Shown here in pieces: positions 36,386-43,039 of a DNA stretch of 64,000 nt (position 1 is its first letter; each line of letters begins with the position of its first letter). The notes under the pieces are model-generated. The model did not search any database, was not told the origin of the DNA, and was given only the letters and a program-made list of their open reading frames with translations. The translations under genes were made by a program, and so were the position numbers. The DNA is from Tilletiaria anomala UBC 951 (taxonomy: Eukaryota > Basidiomycota > Exobasidiomycetes > Georgefischeriales > Tilletiariaceae), in the NCBI RefSeq assembly GCF_000711695.1, contig NW_013547007.1, positions 62,001-126,000 of the forward strand, read 5' to 3'.

Positions 36386-38209
36386 ATGGAAGCGACAAAC
36401 GCAACTGCGAGCTGCAAAATGCCGGCTCTCGAAAGCAAGCCCATCGTTCAGCTCGACTCACTTGAGAATGGCTCAGCGGGAAGCCTAGTCAAGAATGCTG
36501 ATGCCGACTTGGCCCGCTTGGGGTACGAGCCAGAGCTGAAGCGGCACCTTGGCGTCGTAGCTGTGCTGGGTCTCTCGTTTAGCATCATCGCCGCGCCGTT
36601 CGGGCTCAGCGTCGGCTTCATATACGCGCTCATCAATGGCGGGCCGACGGCGATCCTTTGGGGCTGGGTGCTGGTCAGCTTCATCTCGGTCTGCATCGCT
36701 GCGAGTCTCGGCGAGATTTGCAGCTGTTATCCTTCAAGCGGAGGGGTCTATGTCTGGGCGGCATTTATTGCGCCCAAGAGGTACAGTGCAATCGCATCCT
36801 GGATCGTCGGATGGGTGTCGCTCGCCGCCAACTTGTTCCTGTCCCTATCGATCCTCTTCGGCGGTGCACAGCTCATTATGTCCGCCATTTCCACCTTCCG
36901 TAACCAAGAGTGGACTCCGGAACCATGGCAGACGATCCTCTGCTTCTTTGCGTGCGTTCTAATTGCAGCACTGGTCAACCTCTTTGGAAGCAAATACCAG
37001 TACTTGGAAATGCTCAATACCATCAGCATCTACTGGGGCGCCGCAACTGTCGTCATCATTCTCGTCACCCTGCTCACCATGGCGCCGACAAAGCGTAGCG
37101 GTGCCTTTGTATTTGGAGCGTTTGAGAATCGCGGCGGCTGGCCTGATGGCTGGGGTATGTCTTCCTCTGTGCTAACATTAAAGCCTGTACAAGACGCTGA
37201 CGTCTGACTTGACGGCTCTCGTTCTCCCAGCCTTCCTCGTCGGCCTTCTGCAGGCAGCATACACACTCACTGGGTACGGCACTGTGGCACAGTGCTCTGA
37301 AGAAACGCGGAATCCAGCAAAAGAAGTACCGCGGGCCATGGTCGGTTCCGTCATTGCAGCATCCCTTTCCGGACTGCTCTACCTTTTACCGATTCTCTTC
37401 GTTCTTCCGGACATTGACACCCTTCTCGACACCCTTCACGGTGTAGCGGCTGGACAACCCATCACTCTCCTATTTTACATCGTCACCGGATCTCCTTCTG
37501 GAGCCTTTGGACTGCTCTTCCTCCTCTTGGGCATCTTTTTCTTTGCTGGCGTTGGTAGCCTCACAGTCGCGCTTCGATGCATATGGGCGTTCGCCAGGGA
37601 CGGCGGCATCCCTGGACACAAATGGGCGAGTCGGGTGAACAAGACGTTTGAGATGCCAGTGAATGCCCTGATCCTCTCTTCCATCATTATTGCATTGCTT
37701 GGTATTGTAAGTCCGAAGACGAGCTCATCCGTCGTGAGCACCCACTAAATTATGTGGTTATGCGCATACAGATTTTTCAAGGTGCCTCAGCCGCCTTTGC
37801 CGCTTTCACCGGCGCGGCAACGATTTTGCTGTCAATGTCCTACGCCGTACCCATCTGCATCTCTCTCTTTCAGCGTCGGCGAAAGGTGCGCAACGCACCA
37901 TTCTCTCTCGGCATCTGGGGCTGGTTCGCGAACGTGGTTACATTTGTCTGGATCTTGCTTGCCATCGTGCTGTTCTCCTGTCCGACGACCAAGGAGGTGG
38001 ATGCGTCGACAATGAACTACGCATCTGCCGTCTCTGCCTTCTTTGCACTCATTAGCGCCGTCTACTATGTCATCATCGGCAGAAAGCATTATCGCGGCCC
38101 GCTCGGCGTCCAGGTCGACGACGCTGACGAGCATATGTTTTCTGCTGCTGTGTCTGCGCCGCTTAAGGGCAAAGCAGAAGTGACGACGTTCGAACATCGC
38201 AGCACCTAG
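36386..38209 (+). CDS. amino acid/amine permease (APC superfamily)
   Basis: Three exons, 36386-37154, 37231-37706 and 37772-38209, giving 560 aa with about twelve membrane spans. The first conserved helix reads HLGVVAVLGLSFSIIAAPFG, followed by SLGEICSCYPSSGGVYVWAA, the typical Glu-containing loop of fungal GABA/choline-type permeases. A later GYGTVAQCSEETRNPAKEVP block is the conserved APC motif. The protein should transport amino acids, GABA, choline or related amines across the plasma membrane or an organelle membrane by proton coupling; the substrate is not readable. The N-terminus (about 50 residues) and the C-terminal tail are cytosolic. The open frame begins at a TTG five codons earlier, so the ATG at 36386 is used. 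All junctions keep conserved helices intact. Confidence 0.9.
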
Positions 38210-38388
38210 TGCATCCCTTTGAGTCGCCGAAGAGCGGAGCGCGGCTGCGCTGCGCAGACAAGCGCCACGTCCTTGGGCAGCCTCGCCGCCTCTTCATTCA
38301 GCTACACGATTTCCAGACCGAACAAATCAAATGCTGGTCCTTGCCCACCTTCGTGCGCTGCTGCAAGCACCTCGCCTGTAGTTCACTC

Positions 38389-38763
38389 TCATTTAAAGTA
38401 GCATGCCCGTTGAACATCACAAGCACTACCCCTCTTGAAGCTTGAATGCTGATACTTAATTTGTGTTTTTCGAACAAAACTCGTCATCATTGCGGTACGG
38501 CGTGGGAACACCGCCATTGAGAATTGACGCAATCTGCTGTCCAAAATTGTAAACCCGCTGCTGGGCAACGGTCCGCCGTCTGGGTCAGTCTGCGGAACAT
38601 GGATTTGCTCGAAGTGAAATCGAGACTGTCCTGGCCCCAATGGCGCGACTATTGTTTCAAAGCGTTGGTTGAATGTGGACACTGGAGAAACCTTGTGTGG
38701 CTTTCGCGCAGGGTCCTTCCAAGTATTAAAGATATCCATAGAAGCAGAGTATCGTCCAGGCAT
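38389..38763 (-). CDS. hypothetical 124-aa protein, possibly a gene remnant
   Basis: ATG-initiated frame with protein-like segments (NTWKDPARKPHKVSPV, SRFHFEQIHVPQTDPDGG). After about residue 70 an adjacent frame (VYNFGQQIASILNGGVPTPY) looks more protein-like than this one, which suggests either an unrecognised intron or a frameshifted relic. No family is recognised. Its start lies just beside the WOPR motif cluster, so the two could share regulation. Confidence 0.25.
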   Translation of the reverse strand: MPGRYSASMDIFNTWKDPARKPHKVSPVSTFNQRFETIVAPLGPGQSRFHFEQIHVPQTDPDGGPLPSSGFTILDSRLRQFSMAVFPRRTAMMTSFVRKTQIKYQHSSFKRGSACDVQRACYFK

Positions 38764-38771
38764 TGCGCCCG

Positions 38772-38831
38772 TTTAAGTTTATCTTTTTAGGCCTCGGATT
38801 TTATCACATTAAAGTTTGTCTCTTAAAGTTT
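38772..38831 (+). promoter_or_regulatory. cluster of WOPR-type 9-mers upstream of the WOPR gene
   Basis: TTAAAGTTT occurs exactly at 38809-38817 and again at 38823-38831, with TTTAAGTTT (one mismatch) at 38772-38780. TTAAAGTTT is the motif established for the WOPR protein Wor1 and shared by relatives. The cluster is 1.15 kb upstream of the start codon of the WOPR gene. I noticed no other perfect copy in the window by eye. Autoregulation is inferred. Confidence 0.55.
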
Positions 38832-39435
38832 GTTACCGTATCATCTGCAACTTCCGCACTAATAGGTGCGTGGTCGGTTCACGCGGGGCACACCACCTGA
38901 CTTCCCCGCGACTCTCGACTGGCCATTGCTCCAATCCTTGTGTTTGCAAGCGTGGGCGCTCAGAGTAGACCAATGCGCAGAGCTGCAGAGGCACTTTGCA
39001 AAGACAGAGATAAAGGCCAGATCCATTCAAGTCTGAGCAGCGTGGGGGAGGGCCCCACGCCTTGGCAGCGCTGCACGCAGGGTCACGTGTCTTTCCGCCC
39101 TTCACAACACTGTGCGCACACTTTTTGGAGAGGACGGGTAGCCGACTTCCCTCCGCATCTGCAGCTAACAGTCACTGTGCAGCTCATGCGCTGCTCTCAC
39201 GGGGCCTCACAACTAATGCAAGCACTGATGAGGTTTGGCCTTGGCGCTCTCATGAGTCCCATGTCCACCACCGTATCCACCTCAAATACATGTAGCTGTG
39301 CTGTTCTCTCAGCTCGGTGGGCGACGCCAGAGTATCACCACCGAGGACAAAGGTTGATCCCAACAATTTCTTGTTGTCGCCTTCCAGTCCGCGGTTGGCT
39401 TTATCTCGCCCACCCTCCTTCCAGTCTCACCGCCA

Positions 39436-39446
39436 CTGGCCAAAGC
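39436..39446 (+). promoter_or_regulatory. near match to the VosA (velvet) element
   Basis: CTGGCCAAAGC differs at one base from the CTGGCCAAGGC element reported for the velvet protein VosA. It lies about 535 bp before the WOPR start codon. One near match in 1.77 kb is weak evidence alone. Confidence 0.2.
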
Positions 39447-39980
39447 CACTAGTGTCTGGACTCTGGTGGGCCGACCCGCTGGTCCGCCTTGCCATAGTGG
39501 CCCTCGCATAGGTAGGTCTTCCCTTACTCTCTTTCAAGAGAGACACGAGCGCCTGCATTGTGCTCGCATATGAGAGCCGACAAGCTGCAGTGGAAGAAGA
39601 GGTTGCACGACGTCCGTTCGCCACGTCAATTGCACTCCTCACAAAATCATCCAGTGTGCAACGCAACTCGCTCGCTTGACGAACTGTCATTATTCAGCGT
39701 CGCGTTTGCCCTGCTTTCCCCCGCCTTTCGTCCTCGTCTTCAGCTCGCGCACGGGCTACACTCCCCTTCACTGCACCCCCCTCTTTTCTAGCCCGCAACC
39801 TCCGCGTCACCTCTTGTGACGCTCGGCCAAGCGCGAGTGCGAGGAGGCCCTTTCTTTGAAGAGCCCCTTCGCTCGGTGACGGACATATACACCGAACCGT
39901 GCTCGCTGGTCTTCTCCCTCTCTCTTGAATCGCTCGAAAAGCTCCCCATCGCAGCAAGCTTTCCAGCTGGCGAAACAACC

Positions 39981-42900
39981 ATGCCATTTAGGCAACAGCA
40001 GCCAGAGAACGACCGCGACAGACCAGATCCAAGCCAGCACCCTCAACAATCGTATATCATGCCAGCGAAGCAGCTGCAGCTGCAGCAAGACTCTGACCCG
40101 TCCCAGCAGCAGCAGCAGCGAGCCCACTTTTCGGAATCTATGATACAATCCTACCTGCCTTATTCATACCCTGCCATGGTGCCGTATAACGTTCCGAACA
40201 CCCACTCCGCTCGCGTGTACGATCCGCCCGGCACGATTACCCCCGATACGCTCTCTCCCGGCCAGGCCAAGCGAGACGGTTCTCATCCACAAGTTTCCCA
40301 TTCCCCAAACAACCAGTCCTTGCAGGCTCCTCCCTCCACAGACGACCTTCCCTACCTGGTACTCGGGCTACCGTCATACAACGCAGTTTCTATCGCTCCA
40401 CTCGCTCAGGGGCCCGGCACCGATAATCCCAACAATCTTGCACCTCCCGACATTGCGTCTCCCCCGAATGTCGCTGCCCGTTCGCCATTGGTGCCTCACA
40501 CAGGCCATCCGGCTCCAGCTGGCTTCAGTCCGGCTCATCAACCTCATCATCATGAGCCATCGCCTTCTCAGCTAGAACAGGATAGCAAGTGCAGCGCAAC
40601 ACCCATTGCATCTGACTGCCGTCGCTCCTCCACCACGCAGAGCATCTCCACTGAGGCGCCGGCCGCTCACAGCAATCTGCAGCCGACGTACTTTGGCATG
40701 ATCAGGACGACTGCCGACGTGATCAGGTTGCTTGCTGCGACGGACCTGCCAAATGGCACGCCCAACAACCCGCCAAGGCGCATAATGCGCCGTCTGCTCG
40801 AATCCGAGCGCATCAGCCTCGTCCGCGCTGGCACCGTCTTTGCCTGGGACGAGAAGGAGGCTGGCATGCGCAGGTGGACAGACGGGAGATGTTGGAGTGC
40901 GAGTCGCGTCAGTGGCTGCTTTTTGACCTATCGTGAACTGGAAGTGCGCAAACAGTGAGTGTATTAGCCTGCCTTTCCTGTCTCTGGAACTGGCACGCGT
41001 GATCGCTCACAATCTTGTCTTCGTTCTTTTGGACCTCCAGTCGAAACGGCGCGCCAGGAGGGCCGACTGCTAACCAATACAAGGTCGATGGGCTCATCAA
41101 GCAATCTTTCAGCATGATCACAGGCTCCAACCGCAAGATGCACGTCATCAACTACTACACCAAGCGTGACCTCCGCGAGGAAACACTGCGTCGAGTCGGC
41201 CAGGACCCCCGCTTCGAGAACATCGACGGCAACGGGTGGCCCGTGGAGGTCGATGAGACCGAGTACCCCGACCCAGCGCTTGACCAGCAGGAAGATCAGG
41301 GGGCGACCAGCGATGATGGTCCGATCGTCCAGAGCGACAACATAACTGGACTCGTACATCGATTGAGCCCCGTTAGCAGCAGCAGCGACGGTGGCCACCA
41401 CGTCTCCGCTGCTTCTGTCAATGGGCTTACCGGCACGCACGGCCAAATGGCTGGCTCAGGCCTAGTTGTGCCCGCTTTTTCAATCAACAACAGAGGCGAC
41501 TACTCTCCCGGACTAAGCGACGGGGGTTCCTCTCAACAGTTCCAGCCTGGAAACGTGTACGGAAGCTCGCGCTACCCGTCGAGCGGTCACCAGCATCAGT
41601 ACGGCGCGGCAAGCAATGGTGGCGGTAGTGTCGGTTCGGCCAATCACGACTCTTCATCGAGAGGTTCGACTCGCTACCAGCTGCTCTCTCAGCACGAGTA
41701 CCAGAAAGGCCGAGAGCGGTCCTTGCCACAGTTATCTCGCCCGCACCACTTTGTGCCACACGATATTCGTATCGGCAGCGGCGTTAGCAGGATCGCAGGC
41801 GCTGCGAATGGCGATGCGCACGGTGACGGCTCTGTCAGCAGCGGCGTTCACGTCGATCATGATGCCCGCGCCAACCACCGGGAGGTGGCAAAGATGGTCG
41901 ATGTGTATACGGAGCAAAGCGCCTACTCCATGACTCCACTGGGCGAGGCGAAAGGCCTTCTCCCCATTGAACCCATCCCCGTCAAGTCGGGGCATTTCAT
42001 AAGCAACAATGCGCAGCAATTGGGTCTCATGCACGTCGGCAACGATGCATCGGCCAGGTTACACACCGAATATCCGCGCCTTCCAGCGCACAAGCGTCCA
42101 GTCGTCGACAAGAGCTTGTCGCCGGAAAGTCGCCCAGGTACCGCTGGTAGTGCCTCATCGGGCGCCTCACTCATATCTGTCCTGTCCTTGTCGTACCTGC
42201 CTCCTCTGCTCTTGCCATCGCTCAGCCCGAGCAGGAGCAAAAACAGCTTCGCTTTCCGCAGGCGCGAGCCGCTCATCCGGCCTGTCCACAGCAAGCGTTT
42301 CAAGTACGATACGCCTGCCGTCGGCTCGTCCGAAGGCAGCGGCTCCGAGTCAGACGGGTATAATCTCCCAACCAACTTGCCCTTACCACCACCGCGACGT
42401 CCACCGCTGCGACGTCTGCGCATCTCTTCCTTCAGCTATGCTCACGGCGCTGGTGACAGCGGGGAGAACAGCAGCTCGGGTTCATCGTACAGGTCTTCCA
42501 CCACCACCGCTTCGCACGACTCTATACCGTCCGCCGAGTCCAGTCACGGTGGTTCACGCGGCAGCGACGGCCCAGCATGGGAAGACCGCATTTCGGCGAG
42601 GCCGTCTACGCCCGCGGATGGCGCAGCTTCTGTCCTGCCGAGGCTGCTTAGGCTCGACTCTGGCGTGCACGCGCATAGCGGCACGACAATGTCAGTCAGC
42701 ATATCGGAGCAGGAGAGCGCGGTAGGAGCGCTGCTCAGCCTGTCGTCGAACGGCAGCGCCCCTGCGAGCGCCAGCTCAGCATTTGGCGGTGGCAGCAATG
42801 ACAATGACAACCGCCTTAACAGCGGGCATAATGCTGGCGAGAACGCTGCCTACCGCAGCAGTGACAGCAGCAGCATTGGCTCAATTGGCGACAACATGAT

Positions 42901-43039
42901 GACACAAGGTTTAGCAGCAGCGCTCAGCATCGCTGCCCTAAGCGGCAGCGCAGTTGAAGTTCCGCCGCTGAGCAAGATGTCCTCAGGGCTCGACGCGGCT
43001 GACTCGGCTGCGCTCTCGAAGCTCGCCGTCCGTCTTTGA
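39981..43039 (+). CDS. WOPR (Gti1/Pac2 family) transcription factor
   Basis: Two exons, 39981-40954 and 41041-43039 (intron 86 nt), giving 990 aa. The N-terminal 230 residues are Pro/Gln/Ser-rich. The WOPR DNA-binding region follows at about 235-380: YFGMIRTTADVIRLLAATD, then RRLLESERISLVRAGTVFAW and WTDGRCWSASRVSGCFLTY, then across the intron QYKVDGLIKQSFSM and KMHVINYYTKRDL. The remaining 600 residues are Ser/Gly/His-rich and disordered, typical of the family. WOPR proteins (Wor1, Ryp1, Sge1, Gti1, Pac2, Ros1) are nuclear master regulators of morphology, sporulation and virulence. The frame upstream of 39981 opens only with non-ATG codons. The half-domains separated by a linker and the intron position inside the domain fit the family. 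The upstream motif cluster suggests self-binding. Confidence 0.93.

What the first reader, a model, noticed from the sequence alone, without database searches (positions are those of the whole stretch)
38772..38831. WOPR gene carries a cluster of WOPR-type 9-mers in its own upstream region
TTAAAGTTT occurs exactly twice (38809 and 38823, 14 bp apart), with a one-mismatch copy at 38772, 1.15 kb before the start of a WOPR-family gene. TTAAAGTTT is the established binding motif of Wor1 and is conserved among WOPR proteins; Wor1 binds its own promoter in a positive loop. A perfect 9-mer is expected by chance well under once per 1.8 kb on either strand. The arrangement suggests that the autoregulatory switch is conserved in this basidiomycete. 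Binding and the loop are inference.
Basis: partly seen in the sequence, partly recalled or inferred. Interest (0 to 1): 0.75.

Follow-up and report, generated by a model that had tools for sequence, protein, structure and literature searches.

The report
Paired WOPR motif upstream of pac2-like gene

Summary
TTAAAGTTT lies at 38809 and 38823 (+), the only exact copies in the window. The 18.41-Mb genome has 33, and no other same-strand pair of its 8-base core within the spacing searched. The 1,771-bp intergenic stretch should hold 0.003 copies. The third copy (38772) is chance level. The two perfect copies form a 14-bp near-tandem repeat (12 of 14), so they may be one event.

The genome is Tilletiaria anomala UBC 951. 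Its two WOPR genes fall into two clades; the window gene is the Pac2-type one, not the Wor1/Ros1-type. The latter, on contig C25, has no exact motif in the 11 kb upstream. A conserved autoregulatory switch therefore does not follow. Self-binding by a basidiomycete WOPR protein is already published for Ustilago maydis Ros1 (PMC4917244).

Best reading (0.5): a WOPR-responsive element of the pac2-type gene, read by Pac2, by the Ros1-type paralogue, or both. Main rival (0.35): chance plus local duplication.

The parts
38809..38817 (+). exact WOPR 9-mer TTAAAGTTT, copy 1
38823..38831 (+). exact WOPR 9-mer TTAAAGTTT, copy 2; with copy 1 a 14-bp near-tandem repeat
38772..38780 (+). one-mismatch copy TTTAAGTTT; at chance level on its own
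38393..38399 (+). partial site TTAAAGT
38726..38731 (+). partial site TTAAAG
38210..39980 (.). intergenic stretch between the amino-acid permease stop (38209) and the WOPR ATG; TTAAAG occurs here 4 times, all on +
39981..43039 (+). Pac2-type WOPR gene, 990 aa, one intron 40955-41040 (GT-AG); identical to database protein K437DRAFT_45028 of Tilletiaria anomala UBC 951

Best explanation
The pair at 38809-38831, perhaps with the partial sites around it, is a WOPR-responsive upstream element of the T. anomala pac2-type gene. One or both of the two WOPR proteins of this fungus (Pac2-type itself, or the Ros1/Wor1-type protein on contig C25) bind it and adjust pac2 transcription. Shown: the sites, their rarity, their place upstream of one of two WOPR genes, and the clade of that gene. 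Inferred: that a WOPR protein binds, which one, and the sign of the effect.
For: 33 exact copies in 18.41 Mb, so 0.003-0.008 expected in the stretch; the only same-strand pair of the 8-base core within 3-33 bp. The chance that the single pair falls upstream of one of the two WOPR genes is 0.0002-0.0005. Partial words are also in excess: TTAAAGT 3 against 0.063 expected from 652 in the genome; TTAAAG 4 against a mean of 0.37, with 0 of 229 comparison windows reaching 4. Both T. anomala WOPR proteins keep the RWTDG..WS.SR block of the solved WOPR domains. The permease upstream points the same way, so the stretch is the promoter side of the WOPR gene only, unless an undetected gene lies there. 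Precedent: Ros1 binds its own promoter (PMC4917244).
Against: The doublet may be a single duplication event (12 of 14 bp identical); counted once, the coincidence is 0.3-0.8%. The control word also has one close pair among 75 sites. Motif sites show no sign of being regulatory genome-wide: the word is rarer than its reverse (33 against 75), its coding context equals the control's, and paired TTAAAG is rarer than the control (10 against 50). Genes near the other sites are a mixed set. No orthologous promoter was available. Pac2-type binding to this word is not shown in what I read. The comparison windows overlap and mix coding with non-coding DNA.
Confidence: 0.5

Rival explanations
1. Chance plus local duplication: one TTAAAGTTT arose by chance in an AT-richer patch and was doubled by a 14-bp tandem duplication. 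No WOPR protein uses it.
For: 12 of 14 bp identity between the units. Doublets of 11 bp or more at 11-30 bp spacing occur at about 69 per Mb: 19 in 276,124 bases, among them the window's own and three rows of one GAAA array. The control word has a close pair too. Local AT is about 58% in the 171-bp patch.
Against: Even one exact copy in this stretch has a chance of 0.003-0.008, and a further TTAAAGT lies outside the doublet (38393). None of 3000 shuffles of the stretch and none of 5000 of the patch gave two copies.
Confidence: 0.35
2. The pair is an element for some other, AT-preferring regulator, and the match to the WOPR word is incidental.
For: The identical part of the repeat is 11 bp, longer than the 9-mer, so a different or longer word could be the functional unit.
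Against: It needs a second coincidence: that the word of an unrelated factor equals the WOPR core upstream of a WOPR gene. No candidate factor was tested.
Confidence: 0.12
3. The sites belong to an undetected gene on the minus strand (frame 38389-38763) rather than to the WOPR gene.
For: An open frame of 124 aa begins with ATG at 38763, 46 bp from the nearer copy.
Against: No Pfam family at E up to 0.1. In the protein search 2 candidates shared words with it and none scored E up to 10. No RNA family in 38200-40000 at E up to 0.1.
Confidence: 0.03

Closest known systems
Ustilago maydis Ros1 bound to its own promoter (PMC4917244; passages, section 11)
   Same: Ustilaginomycotina; WOPR gene with Wor1-type sites in its own upstream region; several sites together.
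   Different: Ros1 is the Gti1/Wor1-type gene, with six ChIP-bound regions in a long upstream region and a gel-shift probe 2.9-3.1 kb upstream. The window gene is the Pac2-type paralogue, its sites are 1.15 kb upstream, and no binding data exist for it in what I searched.
Candida albicans WOR1 positive loop (PMC5786334; passages)
   Same: WOPR gene with WOPR sites upstream, proposed as self-control.
   Different: Wor1-type gene, 8-kb promoter bound at several places, shown by ChIP.
Fusarium FGP1 and SGE1 upstream words (PMC3364952; passages)
   Same: WOPR-type words 557 and 644 bp upstream of WOPR genes, proposed as possible sites and untested.
   Different: Single inexact copies, Wor1-type genes; those authors report no enrichment of the pattern upstream of regulated genes.
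U. maydis pac2, UMAG_15096 (PMC3164652; passages)
   Same: Pac2-type gene of a related fungus, by name and by my clade assignment.
   Different: Known there: raised in tup1 mutants, and overexpression abolishes prf1 expression. WOPR sites in its promoter are not mentioned in the passages read.

Membership tests
WOPR (Gti1/Pac2) family | Gti1_Pac2 domain (PF09729), both halves | tested here: met
   First half 86.6 bits over the 23.6 cut-off; second half alone 16.9 bits, under the cut-off but in the right order; full-length database record carries PF09729.
Pac2 clade | groups with Pac2-type rather than Gti1/Wor1-type proteins | tested here: met
   28 against 28 rows, branch 100/100. Rows were picked by me from the two hit lists and labelled by list. 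Which side is Pac2 rests on the other side holding the 626-aa Cryptococcus protein, the length given for Rcv1, placed with Gti1 in PMC6243373, and the Ros1 layout. S. pombe Pac2 itself is not in the tree, and database names are unreliable: 'pac2' is also written on some hits of the other list.
Wor1/Ros1 clade (the gene type with known positive loops) | membership of the Gti1/Wor1-type clade | tested here: not met
   The window protein lies on the other side of the 100/100 branch; the C25 gene is the one that meets it.
Autoregulated WOPR promoter | WOPR word in own upstream region beyond chance | tested here: met
   weakened by the tandem-repeat structure
Autoregulated WOPR promoter | the protein binds the sites and changes its own expression | not testable with these tools
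   no binding or expression data held
Autoregulated WOPR promoter | sites conserved in orthologous promoters | not testable with these tools
   no fungal DNA found in the two collections scanned; metagenome collection capped at 0; own genome has no relatives held

The most novel reading that the evidence does not exclude
The two WOPR paralogues of a basidiomycete are wired together: the Ros1-type regulator binds the pair upstream of pac2 (alone, or with Pac2 feeding back on itself). If Pac2 here represses a prf1-like mating regulator as overexpressed Pac2 does in U. maydis, entry into sporulation would shut the mating and filament programme. It would also place Pac2-type genes, not only Wor1-type genes, inside WOPR feedback.
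Probability: 0.25. Interest if true: 0.6.

Novelty: new member of a known kind. Interest (0 to 1): 0.35.

Why it matters
WOPR proteins govern cell form and sporulation in many fungi, and a Gti1-type and a Pac2-type copy occur together in almost every fungus studied (PMC6243373, passage). How the two are connected was not reported in the listings and passages I saw. A rare, exact, paired WOPR word upstream of the Pac2-type gene of a dimorphic, teliospore-forming smut relative is a concrete place to test whether one paralogue controls the other.

Tried and rejected
Mobile or repeated element: 38600-38950 matches only itself in the genome. Hidden RNA family in 38200-40000: none at E up to 0.1. 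Hidden minus-strand gene: no domain, no homologue. Inverted pairs of the 8-base core: none in either arrangement. Paired TTAAAG on one strand: 10 in the genome against 50 for the reversed control, so the short core is not clustered genome-wide. Genes near the other 31 sites: I scanned one long ORF at 30 of them (not always the longest; one locus with only a 127-aa ORF was left out) plus a second ORF at 10. 18 of 40 list a Pfam family, 15 of 40 over the curated cut-off, of mixed kinds; 1 of 40 is a sequence-specific regulator (Zn2Cys6, L031). Coding context of motif against control sites: no difference, 4 of 30 against 4 of 29 score as coding (30 of 33 motif sites, two of them the window's own; 29 of the 30 fetched control loci out of 75 sites, one lying too near a contig end for the script). 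Orthologous promoters: none reachable (no match; 37 pattern matches, none a relative). Place of YHR177W and Wor1: long branches, paired with each other, nearest to gti rows by path; left open. One paper calls YHR177W a Pac2 homologue (PMC11855946) while its RWTDG block reads like the gti rows, so I do not use it as proof that Pac2-type proteins bind the word. The primary motif papers (recalled as Lohse 2010 and Cain 2012) are not held under the ids I tried. Whether UMAG_15096 is in the Ros1 ChIP tables could not be looked up: supplement look-ups are capped at 0.

Full report
What was claimed. TTAAAGTTT twice, with a one-mismatch copy, 1.15 kb upstream of a WOPR gene, read as a conserved Wor1-type autoregulatory switch in a basidiomycete.

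The sequence. Both exact copies are where stated and are the only exact copies in 64 kb. The inexact copy is not informative: 6 such matches in the window, 5.44 expected. The gene starts at ATG 39981, has one intron (40955-41040) and ends at 43039, giving 990 aa. The upstream gene is an amino-acid permease in the same direction, so the 1,771-bp intergenic stretch is a promoter only for the WOPR gene, unless an undetected gene lies there. The one candidate I tested, a 124-aa minus-strand frame, has no Pfam domain and no homologue.

The organism. The spliced translation is identical over 990 aa to a hypothetical protein of Tilletiaria anomala UBC 951, on a contig of the same length as the window's, 240,240 bases. 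The genome paper (PMC4056295, whole text) describes an 18.7-Mb genome of a dimorphic, homothallic, teliospore-forming smut relative isolated from decayed wood. The copy searched here has 18,410,546 bases in 202 contigs.

How unusual. The genome has 33 exact copies, fewer than the reversed word (75). At that density 0.0032 copies are expected in 1,771 bp, or 0.008 if all lay in intergenic DNA (the intergenic share of 37% was worked out from gene density and median gene length in PMC4056295). The same-strand pair is the only one of its kind; inverted pairs are absent. The chance that the genome's single pair falls upstream of one of its two WOPR genes is 0.0002-0.0005, before allowing for how many regulator-and-motif combinations a reader could have noticed. 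TTAAAGT, 652 in the genome against 1326 for its reverse, occurs 3 times in the stretch (0.063 expected). TTAAAG occurs 4 times, all on the plus strand, against a mean of 0.37 in 229 comparison windows, none of which has 4. Those windows overlap and mix coding with non-coding DNA, which makes that comparison generous.

Against this. The two copies are a 14-bp near-tandem repeat (12 of 14). Doublets of 11 bp or more occur at about 69 per Mb (19 in 276,124 bases, some loci overlapping; the 19 include the window's own and three rows of one GAAA array). The control word also has a close pair. If the doublet is counted once, the evidence is a 0.3-0.8% coincidence, plus a 0.2% chance for two or more TTAAAGT; these two figures are not independent. 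Motif sites elsewhere look like control sites in coding context, and the genes near them are a mixed set.

Which WOPR gene. The genome search found two genes with the Gti1_Pac2 domain. A 56-row tree of rows picked from the two hit lists splits 28 and 28 by a 100/100 branch. The C25 side holds the 626-aa Cryptococcus protein; that is the length of Rcv1, which PMC6243373 places with Gti1, with Liv3 on the Pac2 branch (passages). The C25 protein also has the layout described for Ros1, an N-terminal first half and a long linker (PMC4917244). The window gene is therefore the Pac2-type gene and C25 the Ros1/Wor1-type. Database names alone would not settle this, since 'pac2' is written on hits of both lists, and S. 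pombe Pac2 is not in the tree. Contig C25 carries no exact TTAAAGTTT. In the 20 kb read around that gene there are two one-mismatch sites, both in the 11 kb upstream, about what the window's density predicts. The gene in which a Wor1-type loop would be expected thus lacks the mark at this stringency. This does not exclude a loop there, because many Ros1-bound regions in U. maydis lack the motif (PMC4917244).

Mechanism. I favour a WOPR-responsive element of pac2 (0.5). Shown: sites, rarity, position, clade. Inferred: binding, binder and sign. Both T. anomala proteins keep the RWTDG..WS.SR block of the solved WOPR domains, so either could in principle read the word; that this block makes the base contacts is recalled, not tested. 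In the passages I read, binding is reported for Wor1, Ryp1 and Mit1 (PMC4567300; Ryp1 also PMC3720256) and Ros1 (PMC4917244). For Liv3 the passages of the ChIP paper name no DNA word (PMC7537855). Cross-control by the Ros1-type protein is therefore at least as plausible as autoregulation. In U. maydis pac2 is raised when Tup1 is lost and overexpressed Pac2 abolishes prf1 expression, while pac2 deletion alone has no effect on filaments or infection (PMC3164652); Ros1 binds the tup1 promoter (PMC4917244). A Ros1-to-pac2 link would fit that circuit but is not reported in the passages I read.

Novelty. Self-binding of a basidiomycete WOPR protein is in print (Ros1). Searches for Pac2 autoregulation or paralogue cross-control showed no such report in their listings or in the passages read; most subscription papers are not in that library. 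If real, this is a new member of a known kind: a WOPR promoter with WOPR sites, for the less studied paralogue.

Noticed in passing
L031:1501-1509 (G000:C110:29604-29612): Another exact TTAAAGTTT lies about 0.5 kb upstream of a frame with a Zn2Cys6 binuclear-cluster domain, the only sequence-specific regulator seen among the 40 ORFs scanned near the other sites.
   Followed up: no
genome G000 (whole): Words starting TTAAAG are about half as common as the same words read backwards: TTAAAGTTT 33 against 75, TTAAAGT 652 against 1326, paired TTAAAG 10 against 50. The cause is unknown; avoidance of TTAA or of in-frame stops is one possibility.
   Followed up: partly
39816-39980: The reading frame of the WOPR gene stays open upstream of its ATG back to a GTG at 39816.
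   Followed up: no
38389-38763: A 124-aa open frame on the minus strand, beginning with ATG close to the motif pair; no domain and no homologue found.
   Followed up: yes
G000:C11:146158-146210: The control word TTTGAAATT has its own close pair, 44 bp apart on one strand.
   Followed up: no
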